Shown piece after piece: positions 2,161 through 20,658 of a stretch of DNA of 36,901 nucleotides; position 1 is the first letter of the stretch; every line of letters starts with the position of its first letter. The notes below the pieces were generated by a model, which saw only the letters and a list, made by a program, of their open reading frames with translations, had not been told where the DNA came from and did not search any database. The stretch comes from Lachnospiraceae bacterium (lineage in GTDB: Bacteria > Bacillota > Clostridia > Lachnospirales > Lachnospiraceae): positions 1 to 36,901 of the forward strand of contig JAIEEY010000458.1 in assembly GCA_029067205.1 (NCBI GenBank). The letters are read 5' to 3'. Both the position numbers and the translations under genes were made by a program.

Positions 2161-3045
2161 ATGGCAACGCTTGGAAATCCGACAAATACAATTGCAGTAT
2201 TACAGAAATATAATTTTAATTTCCAGAAAAAATATGGACAGAATTTTCTGATTGATGCAAATATTCTTGAAAAAATCATTGCTGCAGCAGGAGTAAATGA
2301 AAATGACTGTGTGCTGGAAATTGGTCCGGGGATTGGCACGATGACACAATACCTTTGCGAAAATGCGAGGGAAGTGGTGGCGGTTGAGATTGACAAAAAG
2401 CTGGTACCGATACTTGAGCAGGATACACTGTCAGCTTATGACAATATTACAATCATCAATGAAGACATTTTAAAAGTGGATATCAACGCGATCGTGCAGG
2501 AAAAAAATAACGGAAAGCCGGTCAAGGTCGTGGCAAACCTTCCATATTACATCACGACACCGATTATCATGGGGCTTTTTGAGAGCCATGTTCCGTTGGA
2601 GAGCATCACAATCATGGTGCAGAAGGAAGTGGCAGAGCGCATGCAGGTAGGTCCTGGCACAAAAGATTATGGCGCGCTTTCCCTGGCAGTTCAGTATTAT
2701 GCGAAACCCGAAGTGATGATGACAGTGCCGGCGAGCTGTTTCATGCCGCGTCCAAATGTTGACAGTGCTGTCATAAAATTGACGCGCCATGACAATCCGC
2801 CAGTGACAGTCTCAGATGAAAAACTGATGTTCGATATCATTCGCGCATCTTTTAATCAGCGCAGGAAAACTCTGGTGAACGGGCTTGGCAATGCGGCAGG
2901 GTTAGAAATAAAAAAAGAGCAAGTCTCGTCTGCACTGGAAAAGATGGGACTGTCACCTGCGATACGCGGGGAAGCGCTCACGCTGGGAGATTTTGCAGTG
3001 CTGACAGAATTGCTTGGCAAAACAGATGAATCAAGTAGGGCATAA
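2161..3045 (+). CDS. rsmA: 16S rRNA dimethyladenosine transferase RsmA/KsgA
   Basis: RsmA dimethylates the two adjacent adenosines A1518 and A1519 in the 3'-terminal helix of 16S rRNA during late 30S assembly, using S-adenosylmethionine; its loss gives kasugamycin resistance. The 294-residue protein has the normal length. Visible motifs are KKYGQNFL at about 24-31, the SAM-binding motif LEIGPGIGTM, the acidic VEIDKKL, NEDIL and the catalytic NLPYYI. The ATG at 2161 follows a GAGGGGG site by 7 bases. It is the third gene of the rightward group after tatD and ends at a bidirectional terminator shared with mscL. Confidence 0.97.
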   Translation: MATLGNPTNTIAVLQKYNFNFQKKYGQNFLIDANILEKIIAAAGVNENDCVLEIGPGIGTMTQYLCENAREVVAVEIDKKLVPILEQDTLSAYDNITIINEDILKVDINAIVQEKNNGKPVKVVANLPYYITTPIIMGLFESHVPLESITIMVQKEVAERMQVGPGTKDYGALSLAVQYYAKPEVMMTVPASCFMPRPNVDSAVIKLTRHDNPPVTVSDEKLMFDIIRASFNQRRKTLVNGLGNAAGLEIKKEQVSSALEKMGLSPAIRGEALTLGDFAVLTELLGKTDESSRA

Positions 3046-3047
3046 TA

Positions 3048-3076
3048 AAATCGAGCAGATTAATTCTGCTCGATTT
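3048..3076. terminator. bidirectional terminator between rsmA and mscL
   Basis: Perfect 12-base arms AAATCGAGCAGA (3048-3059) and TCTGCTCGATTT (3065-3076) with a 5-base loop. A-rich and T-rich flanks on both sides suit the convergent genes rsmA (+) and mscL (-). The stop codon of mscL (3060-3062) lies in the loop. Confidence 0.85.
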
Positions 3077-3509
3077 GCTCTGTCTTGATGGTGTTGTCTT
3101 CAAGCTGTGAAGTGCAATGCGGGCATCTGGTAGCCGCAATTGCAATTTCGGATTTGCAGAATGGGCATGTCTTTGTGGTTGGGGCTTTGGGCGGTTCCTC
3201 TTTGTGAATGCGGGACATCGCCGTATTCATGACTTTTACAAGCAGGAATACGATCAATGCCATAATCAGGAAATTGACCACAGCGGTGATGAATTTTCCA
3301 TAATACAGTGTGACATCACCTGTGATATTCCACGCAAGCTGGTCAAAGTTCATGCCGCCAAACAGACCAAGGATCGGATTGATAATGTCATTGACAAGCG
3401 AGGAGACAATGCTTGTGAACGCGCCGCCGATGATGATACCAACAGCCATATCCATCACGTTTCCCTTGCTGATAAACTTCTTAAATTCTTCAAAAAATTT
3501 CTTAATCAT
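3060..3509 (-). CDS. mscL: large-conductance mechanosensitive channel MscL with C-terminal zinc ribbon
   Basis: MscL is a membrane tension-gated channel that releases solutes on hypo-osmotic shock. The start is ATG 3507-3509 (MIKKFFEEFKKF), chosen because GGAG lies 7 bases before it and the amphipathic N-terminal helix begins there. The 149 residues show the family motif GNVMDMAVGIIIGGAF, TM1 at about 15-45 and TM2 at about 65-95. They end in an extra tail with CPFC and CPHC pairs (about 115-135), a rubredoxin/zinc-ribbon type module added to the usual C-terminal helix. Such tails occur in some Firmicute MscL proteins; their role is unknown to me. The gene stands alone, with its own promoter at 3588-3617. 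Confidence 0.95.
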   Translation of the reverse strand: MIKKFFEEFKKFISKGNVMDMAVGIIIGGAFTSIVSSLVNDIINPILGLFGGMNFDQLAWNITGDVTLYYGKFITAVVNFLIMALIVFLLVKVMNTAMSRIHKEEPPKAPTTKTCPFCKSEIAIAATRCPHCTSQLEDNTIKTEQIEQN

Positions 3510-3587
3510 TTGAGTACTCCTTCGTAATTGTATATTTTTTCCAGGACAGCAAAATTGGTCATGATGCCTCTGCCGTGGGACAGGGCT

Positions 3588-3618
3588 ATTATAACATATT
3601 GCAGCCAATGGCTGCAAT
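3588..3618 (-). promoter_or_regulatory. mscL promoter with overlapping perfect palindrome
   Basis: On the minus strand a -10 TATAAT (3588-3593) lies 18 bases from a -35 TTGCAG (3612-3617). A perfect palindrome with 10-base arms, ATTGCAGCCA A TGGCTGCAAT (3598-3618), covers the spacer and the -35 box, exactly where a repressor would act. Both elements are seen directly; the operator role is inference. Confidence 0.6.
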
Positions 3619-3656
3619 CAAACTTTTAAGGACAAAAGAATCATCTTATTCGTATA

Positions 3657-3812
3657 GTTACTGTTACGCCCCTATTGTGTTTTGCATATTTATATGTTTT
3701 TTCGTTGTGAACAGCAACATTTATGCACACAAAATGCTAAAGGGAAAAGCGAAAGCTTTTAGCATTTTGGTGCTTGATTCCCTCTGCTTTGATGGGAGGA
3801 GTGAACAGTAAC
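3657..3812. repeat. MITE-like structured repeat, copy 1
   Basis: This 156-base element is bounded by the inverted ends GTTACTGTTA (3657-3666) and GAACAGTAAC (3803-3812). Inside is a stem pairing AAAATGCTAAA with TTTAGCATTTT (about 3730-3767). A clearly related copy lies at 27669-27825. Between the copies the stem changes in a paired way. It holds no open reading frame of note. It is probably a non-autonomous mobile repeat or a conserved structured RNA. Confidence 0.8.
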
Positions 3813-4034
3813 AACATTTCAAATCAAGAAAAAGAATACTATATGTACTATGATAGTATCATGATAAGCACATAGATGACTGCTAATACACGCTCTAAGA
3901 TATCAATTTATTTATGTGCTTGTCATGGTCTGTATTTCGACTGGCTCACAAACCGAATTTTGAAACCAATTTCTCCATGCACACAAATTTTTATTCATCC
4001 GCAATTTGTTACTCACTATCCAAATCGATTCAGA
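3813..4034. other. gap with imperfect inverted repeat, no gene seen
   Basis: There is no coding region with a ribosome binding site here. An imperfect inverted repeat pairs ATGATAAGCACATA (3861-3874) with TATGTGCTTGTCAT (3913-3926). It lies downstream of the leftward gene at 4035-4493 and could act as its transcript end, although no U-tract follows. Confidence 0.4.
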
Positions 4035-4493
4035 TCAGCCAACCAATGCACAAATTGTTTCTTTGTTGTCGAGCAGCAGCTTCTGTTGCCACATATATAG
4101 CCAATTTCTATGATTTGTTATCCATTGGTCGATTTTTTCGGCTTCCTCAATCCACTCATCTGGATAATTCCAATTCCCATCATACCTTGGATTTTGATAG
4201 TCATGCGCTCCATAGCAGAAAATAGACGCGAATTCATCATCGCCTTTCTGTTTCAAGAACTGTATGGTCGCCTCTATCTCTTTAGGAGCTGTTGCTTCAT
4301 AAAATGTCCACACTCCACTTCGACCGGACATTGCAAACCAATTTGAAATTGTGAAAAAAGCAGTCACACACAATGGTCTTTTTTCAGCCGAAACAGAATC
4401 ATACAATTCCAGTAAAAATTCTCCCTCCAATAAATAAAAATCATCAATGTCTATTTCTGAAAGTTTTTGATAAAGTTTCTCTATATTCTTCAT
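4035..4493 (-). CDS. hypothetical small protein, possible DMP19/immunity-type
   Basis: The 152-residue soluble protein starts at ATG 4491-4493 with GGAG 10 bases upstream. It is rich in aromatic and acidic residues (WTFYEATAPKEIEATIQFL and a tryptophan-rich C-terminal third with repeated NW/EW pairs). The central part (TAFFTISNWF...TFYE...FLKQKGDDEF) vaguely recalls DMP19/DUF4375-type proteins, but I cannot confirm it. It is the last gene of a leftward group, 19 bases after the lipoprotein gene. By context it may be an immunity-type protein; this is inference only. Confidence 0.7.
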   Translation of the reverse strand: MKNIEKLYQKLSEIDIDDFYLLEGEFLLELYDSVSAEKRPLCVTAFFTISNWFAMSGRSGVWTFYEATAPKEIEATIQFLKQKGDDEFASIFCYGAHDYQNPRYDGNWNYPDEWIEEAEKIDQWITNHRNWLYMWQQKLLLDNKETICALVG

Positions 4494-4512
4494 TTTCTAT
4501 TCTCCGTGATAC

Positions 4513-4908
4513 CTATAAGACACCTTTCAATGTATCTTCAAGGAAAGATATGTCTATTTCATGATCCGTGTCTATACTTGTGTAGAAATAATCCTTATAG
4601 TCTATCTGATATTCACTCATAACGATAAGTTCTTCAATCAGATTATTTTCGGAATCATACCACTTGAGTCGATAACTCCAACCGCTGTGATCTTTGCTGG
4701 ATTTCCCTCTGCTAAACTTTAAATCATTTATATTGTCTGTTATGTACTGAATATCCTCTTCGTTCGTTATCTCAACAGTTGTTCCGTCACTTCCTGAACA
4801 AAGTTCAATTTTACTTGCGTTAGCAATACCAAAAGCCTTCTCAGACGAACAGCCGGCCAGTCCGAATATACAGACTAATACAGCTGCAAATGTAATTCGT
4901 TTTTTCAT
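4513..4908 (-). CDS. small lipoprotein of unknown function
   Basis: The 131-residue precursor starts at ATG 4906-4908 behind AAGGAG. It has a lysine/arginine n-region, a hydrophobic stretch and the lipobox LAGC with Cys at about residue 20, so it should be lipid-anchored outside the membrane. The mature part (about 110 residues) has the repeated pattern of a small beta-rich domain, including TVEITNEEDIQYITDNIND and the phrase YRLKWYDSENNLIEEL. This pattern is common in Firmicute lipoproteins whose role is unknown. It sits between the broken DUF4241 gene and the 4035 gene, all leftward with short gaps. Confidence 0.8.
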   Translation of the reverse strand: MKKRITFAAVLVCIFGLAGCSSEKAFGIANASKIELCSGSDGTTVEITNEEDIQYITDNINDLKFSRGKSSKDHSGWSYRLKWYDSENNLIEELIVMSEYQIDYKDYFYTSIDTDHEIDISFLEDTLKGVL

Positions 4909-4923
4909 AAAAATCTCCTTGAT

Positions 4924-5502
4924 TTAAAAATACTCCGGATTCATAAAGGGCATGATAAGATTTACGATCTTTCCTTCCTCATCCAGCCCCCAATATCCAC
5001 TAAATATACCATCTCCCATACCGCTTGAGAACATAACGAGTCTTTGTCCGGTTTCTGGCAGCTGCCACAATAGGAAATTCCCACCCTCATTTTGTACTTC
5101 TGGATACACTTCATAGCTTTTCTGGAAAAGAGCCTCAAAATAATCCGTATATTTGCTCTTTCCGGGAGTTTCTTTCTGCCACTTTTCAAGAAACAGTCGA
5201 TAATCCTCCGATGTTTTCGCATCTGCAAAGCAGGCAAGACCTGCATCTACACCAAAAAAGGTAAAAACTTTTGGCTTGCCAAGATCCTCTATTTTACTCC
5301 CTTTCGGCATGGCAATCTCATAGCGCGCAGCCTGTCCCCGCTGATTCGAAGCTTTGCCGCGACAATCCGCAGACCTGCGATCTTAGAGTGATACACAGAC
5401 AATTCCACTGGATAACTTCCAATGGGGATTCTCTGATCCAGTACTGTCTCATACTTGCTTCCCAGATGTTCCCCTGATATATTCTTTGACTAGTTTACTC
5501 AT
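4924..5502 (-). pseudogene. DUF4241-type protein, broken by two frameshifts
   Basis: Three frames join into one protein of about 190 residues. The ATG at 5500-5502 (MSKLVKEYI) overlaps the stop of the upstream gene. The reading shifts near 5470-5482 into SGEHLGSKYETVLDQ...IPIGSYPVELSVYHSKIAGL...VAAKLRIS, then near 5333 into QAARYEIAMPKGSKIEDL and on to the stop at 4924. The pattern IPIGSYPVELS...R(I)V.AK...A.RYEIAMP and the C-terminal FGVDAG...GGDG-like SSGMGDGIFSGYWGLDEEG...NLIMPF match the DUF4241 family, often found beside secreted-toxin or immunity genes. The second shift is explained by a single missing C. Either the gene is decayed or the sequence has errors here. Confidence 0.7.
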
Positions 5503-6211
5503 CTTCTGCTGCCTCCTGTTCCGCCAGATAGTCCAAAAATTCTGTTCCATGGCAGCCCTGGTCCATTTCACGGAAGGTTTGTACCATTTCTTCGTAATCA
5601 ATATCGCACTCGCCGCCAAACGGGATAACATAAAGATCCGCATTCCCCTGATCTTCCCAAAAGCCTTCCTTCCGCAATTCTCCTAGGGCTTCGGCAATCC
5701 ACATACGGATCTGCTCGCGTTCCTTTTCAAAAGCATCTTCAAAATCCATTGCATTTTCTTCATACCATTCTGCCGCTTCTTCCGATAAAGGATCCGCATA
5801 CTCTGAAATAGCTAAAGGAAGATTGAGACTGTTCTGCTTTAAATAATCCTGAATTTGTCCAAACAGAGCGGACTCCGCTGTTACCGCATCCCACGCAGCC
5901 CACGCCCCAAAACGGTAAAGATCTTTCTCATCCTCCTCACAATTTTCAATATTTTCTGCGTACATTTCCTCTGTATTGAAATATACGATTGTATAAAAAT
6001 CCTCATCATACACACGCTGCACAATGTTTGCAACTTCAAACGAAATCCCATAAATTGATTGTTTCGCATACATCTCTTTCAATTGTGGATAATAATCTTT
6101 TACAGCGTCCTTGTACATTCCTATAAATTTGTCTCTGTCCAACCTGCTGTCCATGTCATTGTTTTTGTACCTTGCCATTAAAGTTTCTGTCATCAATTCC
6201 TTTGTTACCAT
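5495..6211 (-). CDS. DUF4303-like protein
   Basis: The 238-residue soluble, strongly acidic protein starts at ATG 6209-6211, with AAAGGAG about 11 bases upstream. The pattern (YGISFEVAN...VYFNTEEMYAEN...YRFGAWAAWDAV...LGELRKEGFW...LYVIPFGGE...GTEFLDYLAE) resembles DUF4303 proteins. These are short cytoplasmic proteins often found in toxin-immunity or phage-related gene clusters. The stop TAA overlaps the ATG of the downstream DUF4241 gene (ATGAGTAA), so the two were probably translationally coupled. It is the first gene of the leftward cluster and must be driven from within 6212-6300. Family assignment is moderate; function unknown. Confidence 0.65.
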   Translation of the reverse strand: MVTKELMTETLMARYKNNDMDSRLDRDKFIGMYKDAVKDYYPQLKEMYAKQSIYGISFEVANIVQRVYDEDFYTIVYFNTEEMYAENIENCEEDEKDLYRFGAWAAWDAVTAESALFGQIQDYLKQNSLNLPLAISEYADPLSEEAAEWYEENAMDFEDAFEKEREQIRMWIAEALGELRKEGFWEDQGNADLYVIPFGGECDIDYEEMVQTFREMDQGCHGTEFLDYLAEQEAAEDE

Positions 6212-6492
6212 AATAATTCATTCTCCTTTCTTCCTCTAACTTATTATTGAACAAGTTACTTCATAACACTTGGCTATCCTAATATTGATCTCTATATGCC
6301 CTGCCATTTTATAACGATTCCTTTACCGTTATGATAATAGCTGATTAGACAATTTTTTCGTGTAATACCATTTCTAATTCCAATTTTTCACATTGCTTAA
6401 CACTGTTATCTTACCACATATGCATACACAGTTCCATTCATTTTTACTGAAACATGAATCAAAACAAACACAATAAAGCTCTGTTAAATCGT

Positions 6493-6520
6493 TTTACATT
6501 TCAATACGATTTGTTATAAT
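6493..6520 (+). promoter_or_regulatory. promoter of the radical SAM gene
   Basis: TTTACA (6493-6498), a 16-base spacer, then TATAAT (6515-6520), 34 bases before the start codon at 6555. The rest of the 6212-6554 gap is AT-rich and holds no gene that I can support. It must also contain the leftward promoter for the 5495-6211 gene, which I could not place with confidence. Confidence 0.65.
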
Positions 6521-6554
6521 AAAATCAAATTCATACATACAGGAGCCAAGAAAT

Positions 6555-8405
6555 ATGAACCTAACCCAAAACAACAAAGTCCTCCTAATCGGAATCAACG
6601 CCAAATACATCCACTCCAATCCAGCTGTCTACAGTTTAAAGGCCTATGCGGACAAATACTACTCTGTCCGTCCCGATGGCTGCATACTCGAGATTGCAGA
6701 GTACACAATCAACCAGCCGTCCAATGCCATCTTAGCTGACCTATATCAAAAAAAACCTCATGTGGCAGCCTTTTCCTGCTATATTTGGAATTGGAATATG
6801 ATACAGGATCTGCTCGCGGAGCTGCCCAAGCTGCTGCCTGATACGGAACTCTGGCTCGGCGGACCAGAAGTTTCTTTTCGTGCCCAAAATTTGATGCAGG
6901 AAATACCTCAGCTCACAGGAATCATGGTCGGCGAGGGTGAGGAGACCTTTTTGGAGCTTTTGAAGTATTATTGGGGACATGCGAAAGTGTTACAGGATAT
7001 CATGATGCAGGACAAAGATTTGTCCTGCATCAAGGGAATTGTCTGCAAAGATGGCTTTACTGGAGAGCGCAGCCTCACGGATATTGACAAGCTGCCTTTT
7101 ATATACAATCCGATGCTTGCTTACCAGAAAACGAGAAAAGAAAATGACACACTTGTCACTTTTAAGAACCGCATTATTTACTATGAATCCCAGCGCGGCT
7201 GTCCGTTTCGGTGCGCCTACTGTCTTTCTTCCGTTGACAAAGAAGTCCGCCTTCGCAATATCGAAACAGTAAAATCCGAACTGCAGTATTTCCTTGACTG
7301 CAAAGTGCCACAGGTAAAATTTATCGACCGCACATTTAACTGCAATCAGCAGCATGCACTTTCCATCTGGAGTTATCTGAAAGAAAATGACAATGGTGTC
7401 ACAAACTTTCATTTTGAAATAGCCGCAGACCTATTGACCGACAGCCAGCTCGAAGTGATGCATGGTATGCGTCCTGGACTAATCCAGCTTGAAATCGGAG
7501 TACAGTCCACCAACGAAACTACATTACAGGCAATCAACCGCCGCATGGACATTGACGCACTTCGAAACACAGTCGCAGCCATCCACAGCTTTCAAAATAT
7601 TCACCAGCATCTTGACCTGATTGCCGGACTTCCTTACGAGAATTATGACAGTTTTGTCAGTTCTTTCAATGATGTGTATGCGATGAAACCCAACCAATTG
7701 CAGCTTGGTTTTTTGAAAGTGTTGAAAGGATCACCAATGGAACAGCACGCTGACGAATATGGTATTGTCTACGGCTCCAGGCCACCTTACGAAGTGCTGT
7801 ATACCAAATGGCTAAGCTTTGACGATATTCTGCAATTAAAAGGGATCGAGGAAATGGTAGAAATATACTACAATTCAAACCAGTTCACCCACACACTACC
7901 TGTCCTGATACAGGAATTCGCCTCCCCTTTCCATATGTACGAGGCACTTGCGCACTATTACCGCGCAAACGGATATATGCTCAGTACACCTTCCAGAAGC
8001 TACCGCTATCAGGTGTTATTGGACTTTGCATGTTCTGTTGCGTCAGACAGGCGTACTCTTTTTGTCGAGCTTCTTGCCTTCGACCTGTATCTGCGCGAAA
8101 ATCTAAAGAGCAGGCCAGACTTTTCACCAGAAAATGCCATAGACAAAAATGCTGCGGAAAAGAAAAAAATGCGCCGTTTCTTCGAACACGAGGCGCAGGC
8201 ACATGAATATCTGAAAGGATATGACAACTATACATCGGTACAGCTTTTGCGAATGACGCATATTGAAAAATTCTCTTACCCTGTGTGGAAAGAATGTCTG
8301 GCAGACTGCACAGACAGGCTGGAAGCGCCTGCCTATATTTTATTTGACTACAAAAACCGGAACGCACTGACGCACGATGCAGCATTTTTCGAAATTATTT
8401 TATAG
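6555..8405 (+). CDS. B12-binding radical SAM protein with C-terminal DUF4080
   Basis: The 616-residue protein has three parts. Residues about 8-150 form a cobalamin-binding-like Rossmann domain (VLLIGINAKYIHSNPAVYSL, then GGPEVSF and VGEGEETF). Residues about 205-400 are the radical SAM core, with the cluster motif GCPFRCAYCLSS and the later motifs EIGVQSTN and DLIAGLPYE. The C-terminal third matches the DUF4080 region seen with this subclass. Such enzymes cleave SAM with a 4Fe-4S cluster, and many act in methylations or rearrangements; the substrate of this one is not known. The start ATG follows AGGAG by 9 bases. It is monocistronic, followed by a hairpin repeat and a terminator. Confidence 0.92.
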   Translation: MNLTQNNKVLLIGINAKYIHSNPAVYSLKAYADKYYSVRPDGCILEIAEYTINQPSNAILADLYQKKPHVAAFSCYIWNWNMIQDLLAELPKLLPDTELWLGGPEVSFRAQNLMQEIPQLTGIMVGEGEETFLELLKYYWGHAKVLQDIMMQDKDLSCIKGIVCKDGFTGERSLTDIDKLPFIYNPMLAYQKTRKENDTLVTFKNRIIYYESQRGCPFRCAYCLSSVDKEVRLRNIETVKSELQYFLDCKVPQVKFIDRTFNCNQQHALSIWSYLKENDNGVTNFHFEIAADLLTDSQLEVMHGMRPGLIQLEIGVQSTNETTLQAINRRMDIDALRNTVAAIHSFQNIHQHLDLIAGLPYENYDSFVSSFNDVYAMKPNQLQLGFLKVLKGSPMEQHADEYGIVYGSRPPYEVLYTKWLSFDDILQLKGIEEMVEIYYNSNQFTHTLPVLIQEFASPFHMYEALAHYYRANGYMLSTPSRSYRYQVLLDFACSVASDRRTLFVELLAFDLYLRENLKSRPDFSPENAIDKNAAEKKKMRRFFEHEAQAHEYLKGYDNYTSVQLLRMTHIEKFSYPVWKECLADCTDRLEAPAYILFDYKNRNALTHDAAFFEIIL

Positions 8406-11831: not shown

Positions 11832-12785
11832 ATGAAAAGAGCAAAATTAAATAACGACAAAATCACTGCTTTATATTGCAGGCTTTCCAAAGATGACGGA
11901 ACGAACAACGAGAGCATGAGTATGGGCACACAGAAAACCATGCTGAAAGAGTAAGCAAAACGAAACGGTTTTCTGAACTGTCAGTTCTATGTTGATGACG
12001 GTTACAGCGGTACAAACTATGACCGCCCTGCTTTTAGGCAGCTTATTGAGGACATACGCAACGGGGAAATATCAAGCGTGGGGCTTCACACTATCTGTAA
12101 CCGCTTGCGTAAGGCAAAGGTCATAAAGCCGAGTTTCTACAAAAAGGAACTGTTTGAGAGATTCGTTGACGAGGAAAAAATGTATGACTGGGATACCGCT
12201 TATGTCAGCAAGATATTACACGATCCAGTCTATGCAGGAAACCTTATCGTGGCAGAAAGACCGACCAAGACCATGCGTTCCAAGAAAAGACAGTATATCC
12301 CGTTTGCAGAGCGTGAAGTCATCTATGGCACACATGAGCCAATCATTGAACAGAACCGCTGGGACAATGTGCAGAAGATTTTGCAGAGCAGACCGCCCGT
12401 TATCGGGGAAAGTTCAAGCGGATATGACAACATCTTCCGAGGGATTATCAAATGTGCCGATTGTGGGAGTTCCATGCTTGCCAAAGTGGAACAGAAAAGA
12501 AAGCGGAGCAATGTACTAGACAGGACTTTCTACTGCTGTACCAAATACCGCAAGTTCGGGAAAGAGGGTTGTTCGTCACACAACATTGAGGCGAGGACGG
12601 TACACGAAGTTGTGCTTGCAGACATTCAAAAACACGCAGGGCAGGCATTGACGGACAGGAAAGCAATGGTAACGGAAATTGCCAAGCGTCTTAATCCCCA
12701 ACTGTCAGCGGACAAGGAACAGCAGAAAAAGGAACTAAGGCAATGCAGGCAGCGGGTGTCGGAAATAGAAAACCTGTATGCCAAG
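11832..12785 (+). pseudogene. large serine recombinase (TndX/Tn4451-type), stop + internal deletion
   Basis: ATG 11832 follows a strong AAGGAGG site. The N-terminus KITALYCRLSKDDGTNNES carries the resolvase-type catalytic serine (in YCRLS). An in-frame TAA lies at 11952-11954, after 40 codons. The frame then continues (FYVDDGYSGTNYDRPAFRQL) to about 12078, where the sequence jumps to the recombinase domain (LHTICNRLRKAKV...WDTAYVSKILHDPVYAGN). About 100 residues that carry the rest of the catalytic domain are missing. The zinc-ribbon domain is present (IKCADCGSSM...FYCC...GCSSHNIE). Homology ends at about 12785 inside the coiled-coil. The enzyme cannot be active. Confidence 0.85.
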
Positions 12786-12894
12786 CTGCGGGTCTCCGGC
12801 AGCTTGCGCAGCCTTGCCGTGATACTTGATCACCTTGCTCACAAACCCGTTGTTTGCGCATCTTATGTACATTATAGTTTTTCGAATCATTGTA

Positions 12895-13335
12895 TCACAA
12901 TGCGGATTCCAGTTCCCTGACAAATGTCTCCAACCCTACTTGATCTTCCTCACGAAAACGTCCTATTATAGGACTGTCAATATCCAGAACACCGAATAAC
13001 TCTCCATTTTTATATATAGGAATGACAATCTCGGAATTTGATGCACTGTCACACGCAATATGCCCCTCAAACTGATGGACATCATCGACGCGCTGTGTCT
13101 CCCCTGTAGCTGCTGCCCTTCCGCAGACTCCCTTCCCGACTGCGATCTGCGTGCAGGCAATCTTTCCCTGAAATGGTCCCAGGATCAGTTTTCCATCCTG
13201 CATAATATAAAACCCTGCCCAGTTGATCTGATCAAGACTGTCATAGAGCAATGCAGCCGCATTTGCGAGATTGGAAATCTGATAGGGATTGTCCTCTGTC
13301 AAAGATTTTAATTGTGCAACTATTAACTGATACAT
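12895..13335 (-). CDS. msrC: free methionine-(R)-sulfoxide reductase (GAF-type fRMsr)
   Basis: This GAF-fold enzyme reduces free methionine-R-sulfoxide to methionine. The start is ATG 13333-13335 (MYQLIVAQ), because AGGAGG lies 6 bases upstream; an in-frame ATG at 13401 has no such site. The 146 residues contain the three family cysteines C61 (ACTQI), C71 (GKGVCG) and C95 (GHIACD). Their spacing equals that of E. coli C84, C94 and C118, so the catalytic and resolving cysteines are all present. Other conserved parts are NWAGFYI, DDVHQFEGH and SEIVIPI. The gene ends 110 bases from the mobile-element edge and is otherwise alone. It probably belongs to oxidative-damage repair. Confidence 0.95.
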   Translation of the reverse strand: MYQLIVAQLKSLTEDNPYQISNLANAAALLYDSLDQINWAGFYIMQDGKLILGPFQGKIACTQIAVGKGVCGRAAATGETQRVDDVHQFEGHIACDSASNSEIVIPIYKNGELFGVLDIDSPIIGRFREEDQVGLETFVRELESAL

Positions 13336-13530
13336 ATTTTCCTCCTGTATCACATTGTATCCAATCAAATTTTCCTCTGCTTTCTTATAATACCTTCTCA
13401 AGTTCCTCTAATAAATTGCAATAACAGGTATTACTATAGCAGATATTCATGTATTTGTACAGTTTCTTCTTCCTATGCAAAAGACACTATTATAGATTTG
13501 CATATTCGTTGTGATTTCTGCAAAATTGTG

Positions 13531-14571
13531 TTATAGCATTTCCCTGTATACCCGCATGACATTTCGGCACAGAATATTCTCGATTTCAGTATTTGTAAAA
13601 TGCTGTCTCTCAAATTCCTCAACGAGCTTGTGCATCTGGGAACAGTCCTGTATCTCGAGTTCGCCGCTGATGCCGTCAAAATCAGAACCAAGCCCAAGAC
13701 ATTCGCTGCCCCCTACATTGAGCATATGGCGTGCATGCGCCGCCATTCGCGACACTCGGGAATGACTATCATTTGTTTCATTTAGAAAACACCCATAATA
13801 ATTGAGTCCGATCACGCCGCCGCGCTCCGCAATCGTTTTGATCATGTCGTCTGTGAGATTTCTGCAATGTCCGCACAGCGCGCGCGCATTGGAGTGACTT
13901 GCCACAAACGGCTTTTTCGTATTTTTTACAATGTCCCAGAAGCCCGCGTCGGACAGGTGCGAAACGTCAATGATGATGCCAAGCTCCTCCATCCTTTCTA
14001 TGAATGAAAACCCTTTTTGTGTCAATCCTTTGGAGCTGTCGAAAATACAGAACCCTTTGTCATTTTTGATGGCGCTGCCCTTTTCAGCGCTTTTTCCCAT
14101 CTGTGTGTCCCTTATAAAAAGGTTGGGGCTTGCAAGCTCATTGGGATAATTCCATGTCAGTGTCATCATGCGTGCCCCAAGCTGGTATAATCTCTCCAGA
14201 TTCTCGATTTGTCCCTTACAGCAACCGCCCTCCTCGATCGTTATGAGCGCTGACATCTTTCCCTGTTTCTCATTTTCAAGGATATCATCGTACGTCTTTA
14301 TGACACGAATGTCATTTCTATTTTTTTCCATCTCATCATAAAATACATCAATCAGCTCCAGCACATATGCAAACGGATCAAGTCCCCTTTTCAAATCTAT
14401 GTACATGGCAAAATTCTGCAGTAAGTAACCTGAGCTTTTCATTTTCTGAATATCAATGTGTAAATTGTTCCCAGAAAGCTGATGGGGATTTCCCTTTTTC
14501 TCGGAAATACATCTTTTTCTGCTCTCCCAGATCTCGGATATCGTATCACAATGCATATCTGCTATTTTCAT
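13531..14571 (-). CDS. membrane-dipeptidase-type peptidase, family M19
   Basis: This zinc dipeptidase of the renal-dipeptidase family (M19) hydrolyses dipeptides, in some members containing D-amino acids. The 346-residue protein starts at ATG 14569-14571 behind AAAGGAG. Metal-site motifs are present in order: DMHCDT (H7, D9), TIEEGG (bridging Glu), DVSHLSDAG, ASHSNARAL and GSDFDG. There is no signal peptide, so the enzyme should be cytoplasmic, as in most bacterial members. It is convergent with nothing and co-oriented with msrC, 195 bases apart, so each may have its own promoter. Substrate details are inference. Confidence 0.94.
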   Translation of the reverse strand: MKIADMHCDTISEIWESRKRCISEKKGNPHQLSGNNLHIDIQKMKSSGYLLQNFAMYIDLKRGLDPFAYVLELIDVFYDEMEKNRNDIRVIKTYDDILENEKQGKMSALITIEEGGCCKGQIENLERLYQLGARMMTLTWNYPNELASPNLFIRDTQMGKSAEKGSAIKNDKGFCIFDSSKGLTQKGFSFIERMEELGIIIDVSHLSDAGFWDIVKNTKKPFVASHSNARALCGHCRNLTDDMIKTIAERGGVIGLNYYGCFLNETNDSHSRVSRMAAHARHMLNVGGSECLGLGSDFDGISGELEIQDCSQMHKLVEEFERQHFTNTEIENILCRNVMRVYREML

Positions 14572-14612
14572 ATTCCTGCTCCTTTCCTATTTTATTCCCG
14601 CTGTCAATACGG

Positions 14613-14650
14613 AAACCTCACCGAATAGATTTCTCTATCTGGTGAGGTTT
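14613..14650 (-). terminator. terminator of the ATPase-HNH-DUF262 operon
   Basis: AAACCTCACC (14613-14622) pairs with GGTGAGGTTT (14641-14650), with an inner AGAT/ATCT pair extending the stem. It sits 34 bases after the DUF262 stop codon and before the M19 gene, so it probably separates the two transcripts. The U-tract is short. Confidence 0.7.
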
Positions 14651-14683
14651 GTTCCTATATCTAAAGCGAGCTTGAAAAATGCA

Positions 14684-16348
14684 CTAATCTACATAATCAA
14701 CATCAACACCGATATTTTTTATATATTTATATATATCACTCAATGCATCTTTTTTGTTTTTGTTCGTCTCAACATAATAATTCTGAATTTTGACAGGTGA
14801 GACAAATGGCACTCCATTAATATGATGATCTGTCCAATTTACCAGATAGCGCTTATTACCTGTCGCAAAAGGAATATTATCACTCAGATCCAACTGTTCA
14901 TTCAAATGCGCAAATATCTTTTCATAAAATTCTTTTACGGTACGACCACCTATTACCTCATACCCAATTTTAATTTTCAGTTTATCATTGTCTGCTGACC
15001 CTTTTGTCCTTACCTCATGAGAACTGATAACTTCCTTTTTCTTCTCAAGTAAACCCGCGATCTTCTTGTTGAAAAATCCTATCTGCCTGTTCTCATCCAC
15101 AAACCACCTGCCCTTTCGATGCTGTTCCACATCCAGACAGAAATCATAAATCTCTGAATTGATCTCGGTCTCCTCTACAGTCAAATGTTCGACATCGATG
15201 TCATACATCGAGAAAATAATGCCCGCAAGAATAAATAAAGAATGGTATTTGCTTTCTAAGATACCGACATCCCTCTGCTTTAATTCTTTAATCGCAATAT
15301 CCACTGACCTGATAACAGCTTTATTAAGCATATTGACAAATCGGCTGATCCTATCACAGTCATCATGCTTAAAAACAGAATCCATTGCATTGATAATCTT
15401 GTTGGGCGCATTACTCAAAATCGTAGAATAAATCTCGAAAGCAATACTATCATTGTCATAATATTTCACAGTCCCGTTATCAAATCGCTTTGGTTCCGAT
15501 ATTTTTTTAAAACCTGAAAATCTGAAAATAACATCACAGTTCTCCTTGCAGCAGATCATGTGATTTACTCCAACGATATTCTTAAAAATATCAAACACAC
15601 CTGCTTCTTTTACAGCGTCAATCTCATACTCACCTCTGATCAGATCCAGCTCTCTGTCAAATGCCTCACCTGCGTCATCAATCAGGCTTCTGTTCAAAAC
15701 ATAGTCATTCCATACGGATTGTAATATTTCATACTGGGACAAGGCCACACTTCCTGTATTGATATTTTTAAATAATTCCGGCAGATCCTCCTTACTTCCC
15801 CTGTAAATGATCAATGCAATATCATCATGCGCGATTTCAATTTTTGCCTTTAGAATGTCCAGAAGCCGCTCAACCAGCTCCAGACTTTCAAATTCCGCTG
15901 CAATCTTTTTATCCCCATTCTTTAGCGTAGAATACAACACACTCACTTTCTCAAATTCATACAGATTATTAAGCTTCTCATACCATTTTTTGATACATTT
16001 GCTTAATGCTGCTGGCTCGGTATTCAATTGTTCATTCTTTAAAAATTCCTGAATATCCGATTCAACCTTTTTGTAAAAACGATCAAATGGAATAATCGCG
16101 CCCGGACGGGAAAGATATTGATTCAGCGTATTGATCCTCTGCAGACCATCTATAATATAATATGCATTTTTATCCTCATACAGGGTGATCGCACCAATTG
16201 GAAACCCTCGAAACAGGGAATCCAGCAGCTGCTCTTTTTTTGATTTCTTCCACACAAAATTTCTTTGAAAATCTGGTATCACAAGCTTAAATATTGTCAG
16301 CAGCTTTTTAATTGTCGTCTGATCCAATGCAAACACCTTACTCTCCAT
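14684..16348 (-). CDS. DUF262 (GmrS/BrxU N-domain-like) protein, third gene of candidate defence operon
   Basis: The 554-residue protein starts at ATG 16346-16348, which overlaps the stop of the HNH gene by 11 bases, with AGGAGG 13 bases upstream; an in-frame ATG at 16378 lies before that site. The N-terminal DUF262 domain (about 10-230) shows IPDFQRNFVW (24-33), LFRGFPIGAITLY (45-57), the nucleotide-handling motif IIDGLQR (65-71, family consensus DGQQR) and LPELFKNINTG...LSQYE. DUF262 is the ParB-like NTPase part of GmrSD and BrxU restriction enzymes. The C-terminal half is alpha-helical and lacks the DUF1524 HNH nuclease found in those fusions. Here a separate HNH protein is encoded upstream. 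The likely role is defence against phage or foreign DNA. Confidence 0.85.
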   Translation of the reverse strand: MESKVFALDQTTIKKLLTIFKLVIPDFQRNFVWKKSKKEQLLDSLFRGFPIGAITLYEDKNAYYIIDGLQRINTLNQYLSRPGAIIPFDRFYKKVESDIQEFLKNEQLNTEPAALSKCIKKWYEKLNNLYEFEKVSVLYSTLKNGDKKIAAEFESLELVERLLDILKAKIEIAHDDIALIIYRGSKEDLPELFKNINTGSVALSQYEILQSVWNDYVLNRSLIDDAGEAFDRELDLIRGEYEIDAVKEAGVFDIFKNIVGVNHMICCKENCDVIFRFSGFKKISEPKRFDNGTVKYYDNDSIAFEIYSTILSNAPNKIINAMDSVFKHDDCDRISRFVNMLNKAVIRSVDIAIKELKQRDVGILESKYHSLFILAGIIFSMYDIDVEHLTVEETEINSEIYDFCLDVEQHRKGRWFVDENRQIGFFNKKIAGLLEKKKEVISSHEVRTKGSADNDKLKIKIGYEVIGGRTVKEFYEKIFAHLNEQLDLSDNIPFATGNKRYLVNWTDHHINGVPFVSPVKIQNYYVETNKNKKDALSDIYKYIKNIGVDVDYVD

Positions 16349-16988
16349 ATTTCTCTTTACACCTCCTATAATACGCAAATACAGATAAAAATATTATATT
16401 TTGACTTGATGTATCCATTTTCTTCAATTCCTCATAAAATCCATCTTCTGACATCAGATCCCGCATAAACTCCCGTCTTTTACAAACAAGGCCTTCCCGG
16501 TTCAGACGGTATAATTCAATCATATACTCCGCCTTTTCCTTCTCTATACTGTCCAGCTCTCTGCCCGCAGCAATCGTTCCATCCAGTTTATAAGAAAAAT
16601 ACCTCTCAATGTCAACTATTTTAGCAGGATCAAGATATTTCCTGGAATCGTGTGCACGAGTGCTTCTCTTTGTATTACATGTCCTGCAAGCACACAACAG
16701 ATTGCTCCATTGAAATATCATTTGCGGATACCTTCTTTTGGTTCTGATATGCTCGACCGTCATTTCATCCTCAAAATCCTGTATGAACTTCGTGCAAAAA
16801 GAACATCGCTCATGATTCATTTTCTTAAAATGCCGTTTGGTTTCGGCTGTATTGTAATAATATACTTTCTTATGTGCATTATAAAAGTCATATGCATCTT
16901 TCGTACTCATGCCCGCTATAGCAAGCTTAAACTCTTTATTCGTCTTTGACAGTGCTTTCGGGGTGTATGTTCTGTTAATTTTTATCAT
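16338..16988 (-). CDS. HNH endonuclease (PtuB-like)
   Basis: The 216-residue protein starts at ATG 16986-16988, with GGAG 6 bases upstream, overlapping the end of the ATPase gene by 14 bases. A zinc/HNH core spans about residues 60-110: CSFC (62-65), TVEHIRTKRRYP with the catalytic-type His80, WSNLLCACRTCNTK with Asn96, the CxxC pair 101-104 and Asn105. This order (CxxC, EH..K..YP, W.NLL..C..CN..K) is that of PtuB-type nucleases of Septu and retron-associated systems. The C-terminal half is helical and charged. Its place between an AAA ATPase and a DUF262 protein indicates a DNA- or RNA-cutting effector. The family is seen in sequence; the target is unknown. Confidence 0.88.
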   Translation of the reverse strand: MIKINRTYTPKALSKTNKEFKLAIAGMSTKDAYDFYNAHKKVYYYNTAETKRHFKKMNHERCSFCTKFIQDFEDEMTVEHIRTKRRYPQMIFQWSNLLCACRTCNTKRSTRAHDSRKYLDPAKIVDIERYFSYKLDGTIAAGRELDSIEKEKAEYMIELYRLNREGLVCKRREFMRDLMSEDGFYEELKKMDTSSQNIIFLSVFAYYRRCKEKYGE

Positions 16989-17946
16989 TCCGTTCTCCAA
17001 TGTTCTGCGCTTTTGTGATAATCTTATTGTACCTTCTGTATAAATTGGGATATTCCTGCCTTAACGTCTCTATGGCAGTATGGAGCCTATCCGCATCAAC
17101 ATCATCACTCAGCAAAAGAGCATCTCCTATATAATTGATATCGTCCCTCACCTGCGTCGGAAGCTCTTCCACTTTAAAAAATTGCTCATATATACAGTCC
17201 AGATCTTCATAATACACATCTTCCTCAATTTTCTCCAACCTGCCACTCTTTATGCCATATATGAAACAGTGTTTATATCTTGTCAGCAGAAGCGGCGAAT
17301 GTGTTGTCAATATAAAACTGCAATTGGCAAAATCTGCTTTCATGCTCCCGATCAATTTGGACTGGATATTCACATGGAGAAACATCTCTATTTCATCAAT
17401 CATTACATAAATCTGCTTCTGAGCCAGCAATTCATTAAACAATTCTTCCGTCACAGATGAAATGTCAATATCCCAGGTCATTGCCCAGATCACATTTAGA
17501 TAAATATTGATGATATTTTCAATCCCGTCACTGTACCTGCCGCTTAATTCTTTTACATTGATCTCAAATATCTTACTGATGGTACGGCAGATAAAAGAAT
17601 GTATCACTCTATTCGTCAACAGCTGGTCGCGAAGCCGTTTCAGATGAAGACTGTAATCCCTGTAACTATCTTTCTGATAATGAATAAATTCCTCATAATC
17701 CTTTAATTGTATATTGTCAGTGTTATTCTCGCTGATCACAATTCGATTTGTAGGTATATATATCGCTATTTCTCCTGTCTGATCCAATATGAATTTTTCC
17801 ATCAGTCTGCTGCGAAATACATCATCCAGCGCGTTCAGAATTGTTGTTTTGCCGCAGTTATTGTAACCATATATAATAGAAACATCATTGCTGATATCAA
17901 ATTTCTGCTTTTTAATCACCCCGGTTTGCGGTATTTGAATTACCAT
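16975..17946 (-). CDS. AAA/ABC-type ATPase (PtuA-like), first gene of candidate defence operon
   Basis: The 323-residue ATPase starts at ATG 17944-17946 behind AAAGGAG. Walker A is GYNNCGKTT (27-35), a signature-like YSDGIENIINIYL lies at 138-150, Walker B is IYVMIDEIE (179-187) and the H-loop is TTHSPLLL with H216. This is the OLD/RloC/PtuA-type layout of SMC-like ATPases, but the segment between Walker A and the signature is only about 100 residues, so it lacks a long coiled coil and is shorter than typical PtuA. No TOPRIM or nuclease domain follows; the nuclease is the next gene. The three genes overlap end to start, indicating one operon from the promoter at 18001-18029. Confidence 0.88.
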   Translation of the reverse strand: MVIQIPQTGVIKKQKFDISNDVSIIYGYNNCGKTTILNALDDVFRSRLMEKFILDQTGEIAIYIPTNRIVISENNTDNIQLKDYEEFIHYQKDSYRDYSLHLKRLRDQLLTNRVIHSFICRTISKIFEINVKELSGRYSDGIENIINIYLNVIWAMTWDIDISSVTEELFNELLAQKQIYVMIDEIEMFLHVNIQSKLIGSMKADFANCSFILTTHSPLLLTRYKHCFIYGIKSGRLEKIEEDVYYEDLDCIYEQFFKVEELPTQVRDDINYIGDALLLSDDVDADRLHTAIETLRQEYPNLYRRYNKIITKAQNIGERNDKN

Positions 17947-18000
17947 ATGTATGTACTCCTTTGCATTTTACTTATGAGACTGTTCTGCTTCTTTCTTTAA

Positions 18001-18029
18001 ATTCTACCCCTTCTCATAGATTTTCTCAA
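18001..18029 (-). promoter_or_regulatory. promoter of the ATPase-HNH-DUF262 operon
   Basis: On the minus strand TTGAGA (18024-18029), a 17-base spacer and TAGAAT (18001-18006) lie 55 bases before the ATPase start codon. This is one mismatch from consensus in each box. Confidence 0.6.
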
Positions 18030-18106
18030 CAGTTTTATCCCCAGACTTTTCTCATTCACTGTTCCAATTTGGTCATGATTTCTGCCTGACTGAATCGTTA
18101 TACATA

Positions 18107-18135
18107 TTGACACATATACATGAGCATTTTATAAT
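18107..18135 (+). promoter_or_regulatory. promoter of the hydrogenase-like receptor gene
   Basis: TTGACA (18107-18112), 17 bases, TATAAT (18130-18135): a full sigma-A consensus. The start codon at 18223 leaves an 80-base leader. The leftward operon promoter is back-to-back with it, so the 17947-18222 gap is a divergent control region. Confidence 0.75.
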
Positions 18136-18222
18136 ATATCTATACAATATACACAAGAATATTTACTCCATAACTTTAATAAAAAACGAAAGGATAGTGT
18201 ATCAATTCACTAAGGTACAAAC

Positions 18223-20157
18223 ATGAGTATTATCAACGTAGATATCGACAAGTGTGTAGGCTGTAATGCCTGCGTGCGCGCATGTCCGGTGGGGGACGCC
18301 AACATTGCACGCATGGACGAGAATGGCAAATTAAAAATTGTGATAGATGATGAAAAGTGCATCAAGTGCGGCGCATGCATCAGGGCATGTTCGCATGGTG
18401 CACGGTCGTATGTCGATGATACCCGGCAATTTCTCGAAGATCTGAAACGAGGACAGGAGATTGCACTGATTGCCGCTCCTTCCATTAAGATTGCATTCGA
18501 TGGAAACTGGCGCCATGCTCTCCAGTGGCTGCAAGACCACGGAGCAAAGAAGGTCTATGATGTGAGCTTTGGCGCAGACATCTGCACCTGGGCACACCTG
18601 CGCTATATGGAGAAAAATCCTGGCAGGAAACTGATCTCGCAGCCCTGTGCGGCAGTCGTAAACTATGTGCAGCGGCACAAACCCGAACTCTTTTCCAACC
18701 TCTCCCCGATCCACAGCCCTATGCTCTGTCTGGCTGTATATATCAAAAAAGTTCTGGGGTATAAAGGAAAAATAGCCGCTATTTCGCCCTGTGTCGCCAA
18801 AATCGAGGAATTTCGTGAGACAGGACTTATAGATTACAATGTGACCATGGAGCACTTACGGCAGTATTTTGAAGAAAACAATGTGAGACTGCCGGAGGTC
18901 AAGGTCTACAGCGAATTTGAGTTTGACGGCAAACAAGGGTTAGAGGGCGCCATCTATCCCAAGCCGGGCGGACTAATGAGCAATATTCTGACACATGCGC
19001 CACAGATGAATGTCATCACCTCCGAGGGAACGGAATCGCTCTATCACGATATGGATACATACAGCACCCTGCGGGAACAGGACAAGCCGGATCTCTTTGA
19101 CGTGCTCAACTGCGGCGACGGCTGCAACGGCGGACCTGCGACAGGTGTTCACTATCAGCGCTTTGCCATGAACAACATCATGCATGATGTGGAACAGTAT
19201 GCCAAGAAAGTCCGCAAGGCAAACACCACCAAAAAAGGCGTGGACCAGCAGTTTGCCGAATTTGACAAAACACTCAATCTGAATGATTACATACGTACAT
19301 ACAAACGCTATACGATCGACAAAAAAGGGACTTCCGAAAGAGAAATCGATGACGCGTTCGCACGCATGGGCAAACACACTGCGTCCGAGAAACGGTTTGA
19401 CTGCCATTCCTGTGGCTATCGCTCCTGCCGCGAAATGGCGATCGCGATTTCGCGGGGATTAAACACACCGGAAAACTGTCACGAATTTATGATGAAGTCC
19501 ATTCAGGCGGAACGCCACAGAGTCAGCGAGGTCAACGAAAAGGTCGTTGCCATGAACGATGAGCTGATGCGCGTATTTGGCAACCTCTTTGAAAATATTG
19601 AAATGGTAAAGCAGGAAACAGAACAGATCCGGCAGGAGAGCAGCAAGAGCTCACAGGAAATGACAGATGTGTCAAAACGTATGGAAGAGCTGAACCAGAT
19701 GAACCAGAATATCACACAGGCGATGCAGGCGATCAATCAGAGCATTGGGAAATACAATGAAATGACACAGAACGTCGAGAAAATCGCCGGAAAGATCAAC
19801 CTCCTCTCACTAAATGCTGCAATCGAGGCTGCAAGGGCAGGCGAAGCAGGGCGCGGCTTTGCAGTTGTGGCGTCCAACATCCGGGAGCTGTCTGATAACT
19901 CCAAGACCTCTGTCAGCAGCGCCAAAGAAAATGACGAAGAAATCAAGAGTGCGATCGAGAATGTCAATCTGGCAATCGAAAACTTTGAATCTACTGTCAC
20001 AAAACTGATCACAGTGACAAACAGCGCGATTGAGGGCGTAAAGACCACATCCGACAACAGCCAGAGTATCAAAAAATCGATGGAGGATTTAGAGCAGCTT
20101 GCAAAAGACGTGGAAGATATGATCATCGAAACTAATAAAGTATTACAAATCGAGTAG
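18223..20157 (+). CDS. soluble chemotaxis-type receptor with [FeFe]-hydrogenase-like sensor domain
   Basis: The 644-residue protein fuses four modules. Two 4Fe-4S ferredoxin motifs come first ([11 protein letters not shown] from C11, [11 protein letters not shown] from C46). The [FeFe]-hydrogenase large-subunit domain covers about 75-350, with QPCAA (C142), SPCVAKIEE (C190) and NCGDGCNGG (C297, C301), which match the H-cluster ligands. An Fe-S domain follows (CHSC...C at 394-416). A methyl-accepting signalling domain (about 460-640) has the hairpin tip [21 protein letters not shown] (broken here only by length). The canonical TSCCP is replaced, so the proton-relay cysteine of catalytic enzymes is missing. 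There is no membrane segment or HAMP. It is probably a cytoplasmic H2 or redox sensor talking to CheA/CheW. Confidence 0.9.
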
Positions 20158-20180
20158 GGAAGAGTTCCCTGCTCGATTTT
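20147..20180 (+). terminator. terminator after the hydrogenase-like receptor
   Basis: AAATCGAG (20147-20154) pairs with CTCGATTT (20172-20179), with an inner GGGAA/TTCCC pair and a T-run. It overlaps the end of the receptor gene and ends where the leftward gene at 20182 stops, so it may serve both. Confidence 0.85.
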
Positions 20181-20181
20181 C

Positions 20182-20658
20182 TCACCAGGTAAGTCCTTTC
20201 TTCACTTCAACAACCCGATATCCCATCTGAGAAAGCAGATCGTATCCATTTAATGTGATGCTTTTTCGTGTCTCAAATAAATAATTCTGCTCTGTAAAAT
20301 AAGTGAGCAGCAACCCTGCCATTTTCGGCTCAATAATCGTGAAATAATACTCTTCCGGATTCGTCCGGGACTCAACAAGCGTGACAGAATACTCTGGATT
20401 ACCCATAGACATCGTAATTCCTTCATTATATTGAATCATACCACCCTGCAAAGGATTCGTTACTGCAACCCACGATACTGCAACACCTTCATTATATTGA
20501 CCGTAAAGACTATCCTTTATATCAGCAAAAACGACGCTGATCACAGAAGTCTTATCCTCAAACGGTGAGAGGTGCACTACTGTCTCATGCTCACAAATCG
20601 AATACCACCAGACAAACTTTTGCCCATTTACCGTTATCGTCCTTACTTTTCTCTTCAT
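20182..20658 (-). CDS. hypothetical protein with FVWW motif (paralogue of next gene)
   Basis: The 158-residue protein starts at ATG 20656-20658, directly abutting the stop of the upstream gene. Its N-terminal 35 residues (RTITVNGQKFVWWYS) match those of the neighbour (RRIQYHGQNFVWWIA): a basic start, I-x-V/Y-x-G-Q-x-F-V-W-W, then a beta-rich segment. The C-terminal half (PEYSVTLVES...YYFTIIEPKMAGLLLTYF) looks like beta strands and a helix. There is no signal peptide or known catalytic motif. I do not recognise the family. It is probably a small beta-sheet domain protein duplicated in tandem; function unknown. Confidence 0.75.
   Translation of the reverse strand: MKRKVRTITVNGQKFVWWYSICEHETVVHLSPFEDKTSVISVVFADIKDSLYGQYNEGVAVSWVAVTNPLQGGMIQYNEGITMSMGNPEYSVTLVESRTNPEEYYFTIIEPKMAGLLLTYFTEQNYLFETRKSITLNGYDLLSQMGYRVVEVKKGLTW

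What the first reader, a model, noticed from the sequence alone, without database searches (positions are those of the whole stretch)
14684..17946. Three-gene AAA ATPase - HNH nuclease - DUF262 operon: candidate Septu-like defence system with an added GmrS-type partner
Three genes overlap end to start (14 and 11 bases) behind one promoter and before one terminator. The ATPase (Walker A, signature-like SDG, Walker B, H-loop) and the HNH protein (CxxC, EH, W.NLL, C..CN..K) match the PtuA/PtuB layout of Septu. The third protein has DUF262 motifs (FQRNFVW, DGLQR) known from GmrSD and BrxU, where DUF262 is fused to an HNH nuclease. Here the HNH is separate and shared with an ATPase, so the operon looks like a merge of two defence designs. 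The ATPase lacks the long coiled coil of typical PtuA. Low spacing and coupling argue for a fixed complex. I know of no described system with exactly these three parts, but I cannot search.
Basis: partly seen in the sequence, partly recalled or inferred. Interest (0 to 1): 0.85.

Follow-up and report, generated by a model that had tools for sequence, protein, structure and literature searches.

The report
Septu variant with DUF262 partner
This is a small three-gene cluster, kept together in several related bacteria, in which a known virus-defence pair (an ATPase and a nuclease called Septu) is accompanied by a third protein that probably senses invading or modified DNA; it looks like a new variant of a known defence system rather than a wholly new kind.

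The parts
16975..17946 (-). PtuA: ABC/OLD-type ATPase of Septu, 323 aa, short form
   Evidence: PADLOC PtuA 2e-29; PDB PtuA 8ee4 3.1e-16 with the ten-sequence profile; Walker A/B, signature and H-loop invariant in 10 orthologues
16338..16988 (-). PtuB: HNH nuclease of Septu, 216 aa from ATG (220 from TTG at 17000)
   Evidence: PADLOC PtuB 4.2e-27, TIGR02646 above cut-off, PDB PtuB 8ee7 1.7e-14; HNH and CxxC residues invariant
14684..16348 (-). DUF262 (GmrSD_N-type) protein, 554 aa, no DUF1524 match
   Evidence: Pfam PF03235 5e-27; PADLOC NsnA 1.1e-18 over residues 23-367
15716..16288 (-). DUF262 NTPase-type domain, residues 21-211
   Evidence: Pfam match range; FQR, DGLQR, FKNIN motifs invariant in 10
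14687..15001 (-). C-terminal module, residues 450-554, undescribed; SeqA-like model
18001..18029 (-). promoter-like site upstream of PtuA, 10 of 12 bases
   Evidence: not above chance as a class
14612..14650 (-). strong hairpin after the DUF262 gene (approximate ends), possible processing or termination site
   Evidence: fold z -5.2; no T run on this strand

Best explanation
A three-protein Septu variant. PtuA and PtuB form the ATP-dependent nuclease core, with the HNH of PtuB as the effector that cuts nucleic acid (tRNA or DNA) and stops phage growth. The DUF262 protein is a dedicated partner that uses NTP binding or hydrolysis to read phage or modified DNA, aided in most members by its C-terminal module, and passes this to the PtuA ATPase, releasing or activating PtuB. 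It would take the place that reverse transcriptase/msDNA holds in retron-type Septu. Shown here: gene identities, regular linkage, conservation of the active-site motifs, separate clade. Inferred: the sensor role, the gating step, the target and the defence function itself.
For: Linkage in both directions: the ten full-length DUF262 orthologues found all sit behind ptuA-ptuB. PtuB of this clade (E below 1e-100) occurs in 9 of 38 genus genomes and 2 of 299 family genomes; all have the DUF262 gene except G407, whose contig ends about 0.1 kb after ptuB. Of 17 other PtuB loci none has DUF262 adjacent, and 16 have none within four ORFs. PtuA and PtuB of these operons form their own clade (11 of 11 in one clade; 27 and 28 leaves, support 0.72 and 0.80). 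All three genes look under purifying selection against L021 (pN/pS about 0.24-0.26, synonymous sites saturated). Known roles: DUF262 is an NTPase tied to recognition of modified DNA in GmrSD, BrxU and SspE (PMC10952713 passages; PMC12137116 passages); Septu PtuA and PtuB active sites are needed and tRNA-Tyr is cut upon infection (PMC13096335 passages).
Against: No experiment. The full-length DUF262 model was poor (pLDDT 40.5), so no interface could be assessed. Nine of the ten operons were collected with the DUF262 protein or its module as query, so the ten of ten figure is partly by construction; the PtuB search is the independent test. Not all operons overlap. The three gene trees share only 3-5 of 7 splits. 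Pfam showed no other defence gene among ten neighbours scanned (PADLOC was not run on them).
Confidence: 0.5

Rival explanations
1. The DUF262 protein is a second effector (ParB/Srx-type nuclease or nucleotide hydrolase) and PtuA-PtuB, or PtuA alone, does the sensing, giving a two-effector system.
For: PtuX of ptuXYZ is described as a putative nuclease of ParB/Srx fold; earlier work took GmrS as endonuclease and NTPase (abstract of PMC4619093 in search listing).
Against: DUF262 proteins with known roles are NTPase/recognition parts with a separate nuclease domain; here a nuclease with intact HNH residues is already present.
Confidence: 0.2
2. The DUF262 protein is mainly a lock: it holds PtuAB inactive, like RT-msDNA in retron Septu, and defence starts when a phage product breaks the complex.
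For: Septu type II has ptuC (reverse transcriptase) as the extra part (PMC8565338 passages); that it acts as a lock is recalled. The third gene is always last and overlaps ptuB in 5 of 10 operons.
Against: The deletion in L020/L047 hit all three genes at once, so it does not tell whether loss of DUF262 alone is tolerated.
Confidence: 0.2
3. Ordinary Septu that happens to travel with an independent DUF262 gene.
For: PADLOC profiles match PtuA and PtuB as Septu; DUF262 genes also occur without PtuAB, as in plasmid records.
Against: Same order in ten operons in at least five surroundings, no adjacent DUF262 in 17 other PtuB loci, separate PtuA/PtuB clade.
Confidence: 0.08

Closest known systems
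Septu type I (PtuA-PtuB)
   Same: ATPase plus HNH pair, same order, same motifs, profile matches
   Different: separate clade; PtuA about 130 residues shorter than solved PtuA 8ee4 (gaps of about 84 and 48, the first resting on weak alignment pieces); regular third gene
Septu type II / type I-A retron (ptuC RT + PtuA + PtuB)
   Same: three-gene system with PtuA and PtuB as effector pair
   Different: extra gene is DUF262, at the end, not a reverse transcriptase at the start; no Rfam RNA at gathering threshold in 12000-20500
Menshen / NsnABC
   Same: DUF262 protein with an OLD/ABC ATPase and a third protein; NsnA is the nearest PADLOC profile of the DUF262 protein
   Different: ATPase is PtuA, not NsnB; HNH PtuB in place of NsnC. 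A true NsnABC scores 375, 365 and 412 bits, P0003 scores 66 against NsnA
ptuXYZ (proposed 2025, PMC11980606)
   Same: DUF262 + PtuA-like ATPase + nuclease in one operon
   Different: effector there is a PIN/YoeB-type RNase, DUF262 gene first; here HNH PtuB and DUF262 last
GmrSD / BrxU / SspE / GrwA
   Same: DUF262 domain with QR, DGxQR, FxxxN motifs
   Different: no DUF1524 nuclease domain; separate PtuB HNH and an ATPase instead

Membership tests
Septu type I | PtuA-type ATPase next to PtuB-type HNH | tested here: met
   ten operons
Septu type I | two-gene system without a further conserved gene | tested here: not met
   DUF262 gene in all ten complete operons found
Septu type I | PtuA with the long insertion of solved PtuAs | tested here: not met
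   profile alignment to 8ee4 (465 aa) skips about 84 and 48 residues; 322-351 aa against 369-468 in 16 others. PADLOC also holds PtuA profiles of 289 and 294 positions, so short PtuAs are not unique to this clade
Septu type I | antiphage activity needing both enzymes | not testable with these tools
   needs plaque assays
Septu type II / retron I-A | reverse transcriptase gene and msr-msd RNA | tested here: not met
   no RT domain among the ten neighbouring ORFs scanned, Rfam none in 12000-20500, NCBIfam retron PtuA/PtuB equivalogs far below cut-off
Menshen (NsnABC) | NsnA-type DUF262 protein | tested here: inconclusive
   best PADLOC match but far below a true NsnA (65.7 against 375 bits)
Menshen (NsnABC) | NsnB ATPase and NsnC | tested here: not met
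   best match of the ATPase is PtuA, and NsnB is not among the 25 listed of 92; the HNH protein lists PtuB first, with no NsnC among the 25 listed of 60
GmrSD type IV restriction | DUF262 domain | tested here: met
GmrSD type IV restriction | DUF1524 nuclease domain, fused or adjacent | tested here: not met
   no such Pfam match in any of the three proteins at E up to 0.01
ptuXYZ | PIN/YoeB-type third protein | tested here: not met
   no such match in the three proteins; effector is HNH PtuB
SeqA-type methyl-DNA-binding domain (C-terminal module) | SeqA C-terminal fold | tested here: inconclusive
SeqA-type methyl-DNA-binding domain (C-terminal module) | sequence profile match | tested here: not met
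   no SeqA among Pfam matches of 9 modules at E up to 1; PF03925 found nowhere in the genome while E. coli control rings; hhalign no better than shuffles

The most novel reading that the evidence does not exclude
To my knowledge it would be the first Septu with a known DNA-modification input and a SeqA-like fold in a defence sensor.
Probability: 0.17. Interest if true: 0.8.

Novelty: new variant of a known kind. Interest (0 to 1): 0.58.

Why it matters
As far as I know, how two-gene Septu senses infection is not settled. A natural variant with a separate, conserved DUF262 protein offers a system in which sensor and effector can be pulled apart. Together with Menshen and ptuXYZ it points to a general plan: DUF262 plus an OLD/ABC ATPase, with the effector exchanged (NsnC, YoeB-type RNase, HNH). 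Present profile libraries would probably label this operon plain Septu and miss the third gene.

Tried and rejected
Searches that found no relative: P0003, P0002 and the module alignments in viral contigs; the module in plasmids. P0003 in plasmids (16 records) and phages (1 record) gave only partial DUF262 matches, none covering 80% of the query; five plasmid neighbourhoods were opened and none had a gene annotated as PtuA, PtuB or HNH (one had a 399-base 'ATP-binding protein' gene, not tested). A2 in viral contigs gave 8 DUF262 loci, neighbours not examined. Phylum search with the DUF262 profile: 4 of 398 genomes, the best besides the window's own at 9.7e-25 and not an orthologue. Order search with P0003: 5 of 392, one of them the window, one the module alone, three general DUF262 proteins.

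The full-length DUF262 model was too poor to use (pLDDT 40.5, pTM 0.29, four sequences). No complex could be predicted. The module model: the best of five has pLDDT 87.8, the other four 65.9-72.6. Foldseek on it gave nothing significant in PDB or viral models. Pfam gave only weak matches to other families of unknown function for the module (DUF6438 0.053 for one sequence; DUF3964 0.0045 at best, in 2 of 9). The SeqA idea was tested by sequence and not supported: hhalign probability 0.6, reached or exceeded by 5 of 60 column shuffles. Ungapped scores put the last strand-loop-helix on the SeqA YWVITNTNT segment in 3 of 4 SeqAs (38, 10 and 27 of 300 shuffles as good) and elsewhere in the fourth (68 of 300); the middle strand fell on the expected SeqA strand in 1 of 4, the first helix in none. 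One of five SeqA places (L113, a degenerate copy with stops) was used in the hhalign alignment with stop signs taken out, and dropped from the second test. D12-class methyltransferase genes were found in 6 of 7 operon-bearing genomes (4 of 4 long-form, 2 of 3 short-form), which separates nothing.

Literature: no paper that I saw in the held library joins Septu/PtuA, HNH PtuB and DUF262 as one system (searches; only 12 of 25 hits were listed, and I read passages of few). The Menshen domain-polymorphism paper (NAR 2025, gkaf357) was seen only as a title in a reference list and is not held, so it may bear on this. The search for the Nsn names found no relevant paper among 20 listed of 153; that NsnA belongs to Menshen is recalled. 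Passages of PMC10853773 were read without use.

Full report
WHAT IS THERE. Three minus-strand genes lie end to start: 16975-17946 (323 aa), 16338-16988 (216 aa from ATG) and 14684-16348 (554 aa), overlapping by 14 and 11 bases. They sit between a gene with hydrogenase-like and chemotaxis-signalling domains on the other strand and a membrane dipeptidase gene on the same strand. A promoter-like site exists but the scan is close to chance; a strong hairpin follows the last gene without a T run. No tRNA was found in the window and no Rfam RNA in 12000-20500.

WHAT THE PROTEINS ARE. The first is PtuA (PADLOC 2e-29; solved Septu and retron PtuAs with the ten-member profile, best 3.1e-16) and the second PtuB (PADLOC 4.2e-27; TIGR02646 above its cut-off; solved PtuB 1.7e-14). 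The third has a GmrSD_N (DUF262) domain at residues 21-211 and no DUF1524 match. Its nearest PADLOC profile is NsnA (1.1e-18, residues 23-367), which 10 of 10 orthologues match. That NsnA/B/C are the Menshen proteins is recalled; a review says that Menshen pairs a DUF262 gene with a predicted OLD nuclease (PMC10952713, passages).

CONSERVATION. A genome-contig search with the C-terminal module gave three loci, among them L021, a contig of another uncultured Lachnospiraceae with the same three genes (65.9, 62.5 and 66.4% identity; pN/pS about 0.24-0.26 with saturated synonymous sites). A search of the 38 genus genomes with its DUF262 protein gave nine: eight full-length (the window's own included) and one remnant; a family search of 397 genomes gave one more. 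With L021 that makes ten complete operons including the window, all ptuA-ptuB-DUF262 in this order. Surroundings differ: hydrogenase-like/dipeptidase (window), flavoreductase/dipeptidase (L040, L041), ABC transporter/DUF523-like (L042, L043), AAA proteins and two-component genes (L044, L045), sugar-pathway genes (L046), RecQ-like/Crp-like (L050) (labels outside the window are my reading of the sequences, not profile results). 151, 60 and 68 residues are invariant in DUF262, PtuB and PtuA, including the catalytic motifs named in the observation check.

LINKAGE, TESTED THE OTHER WAY. The PtuB profile finds, in the genus, nine genomes at E below 1e-100 and then a gap to 4e-12, where other PtuBs begin. 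Eight of the nine are those with the full-length DUF262 gene; the ninth, G407, has ptuA and ptuB at the end of a contig, about 0.1 kb after ptuB. In the family, 2 of 299 genomes have the strong match (the window's and G642), both with DUF262. Of 17 other PtuB loci (13, four) none has an adjacent DUF262 gene and 16 have none within four ORFs; in the other, L094, a DUF262 gene about 3.5 kb off belongs to a separate NsnABC operon, and the PtuB there has no PtuA. Several of these stretches end early at contig ends. In trees with these controls, PtuA and PtuB of the DUF262 operons form one clade each (11 of 11; support 0.72 and 0.80; midpoint root). The three gene trees agree only in part (distance correlation 0.82-0.92; 3-5 of 7 splits shared; no null model run).

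TWO FORMS AND A LOSS. Seven DUF262 proteins are long (547-603 aa) with the C-terminal module, three are short (438-452 aa) without it, and a search with the module profile finds it nowhere else in the 38 genus genomes, the three short-form genomes included. In G414 (= L020/L047), a close relative with flanks 92 and 98% identical, a deletion of about 2.5 kb (window 15283-17765) removed most of ptuA, all of ptuB and the DUF262 domain. The system is dispensable there.

MECHANISM. In Septu EcB88 the Walker and HNH residues are needed and infection leads to tRNA-Tyr cleavage (PMC13096335, passages). In GmrSD, BrxU, SspE and GrwAB the DUF262 domain is an NTPase tied, or thought to be tied, to recognition of modified DNA (PMC10952713 and PMC12137116, passages). 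The simplest reading is that the DUF262 protein senses DNA and gates the PtuA-PtuB nuclease, in the place held by the reverse transcriptase in Septu type II (PMC8565338, passages). That the DUF262 protein is a lock or a second effector remains open.

WHAT IS KNOWN. The closest published designs are ptuXYZ, with DUF262, PtuA-like ATPase and a PIN/YoeB RNase (PMC11980606, section 26 read), and Menshen. A complete NsnABC operon lies on the same contig as one of our operons in G642 and scores 375, 365 and 412 bits, far from the present proteins. My searches of the held library found no description of a PtuA-PtuB-DUF262 system, but not every hit was read and the Menshen domain-polymorphism paper could not be opened. 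I file it as a new variant of Septu, not a new kind.

Noticed in passing
L094 203-3311 (G642:C28, about 43202-46310): Complete NsnABC (Menshen-type) operon by PADLOC, followed after another gene by a PtuB-like gene without PtuA; the same contig carries the three-gene operon at about 4317-7699.
   Followed up: partly
L022 7539-8294 (same place as L006 8176-8931): Protein with hydrophobic N-terminal stretches and the same C-terminal module, directly after an AlwI-type endonuclease with two D12-class adenine methyltransferases.
   Followed up: partly
L047 7558-8262 / L020 7677-8381: Deletion of about 2.5 kb through all three genes, leaving a 3' remnant of the DUF262 gene.
   Followed up: yes
L045 1701-2369 and 7882-8382: A complete and a partial copy of nearly the same response-regulator gene flank the operon, which suggests insertion with partial duplication.
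   Followed up: no
L021, within the DUF262 gene 2591-4402 (after about residue 329): Insertion of about 56 residues of low-complexity GEAGVR-like repeats not seen in the nine other orthologues.
   Followed up: no
window 12078-12920: Part of a serine recombinase (Recombinase and zinc-ribbon domains) without a resolvase domain match, a likely mobile-element remnant near the operon.
   Followed up: partly
window 18223-20157: [FeFe]-hydrogenase-like domain fused to a methyl-accepting chemotaxis signalling domain, beside the operon.
   Followed up: no
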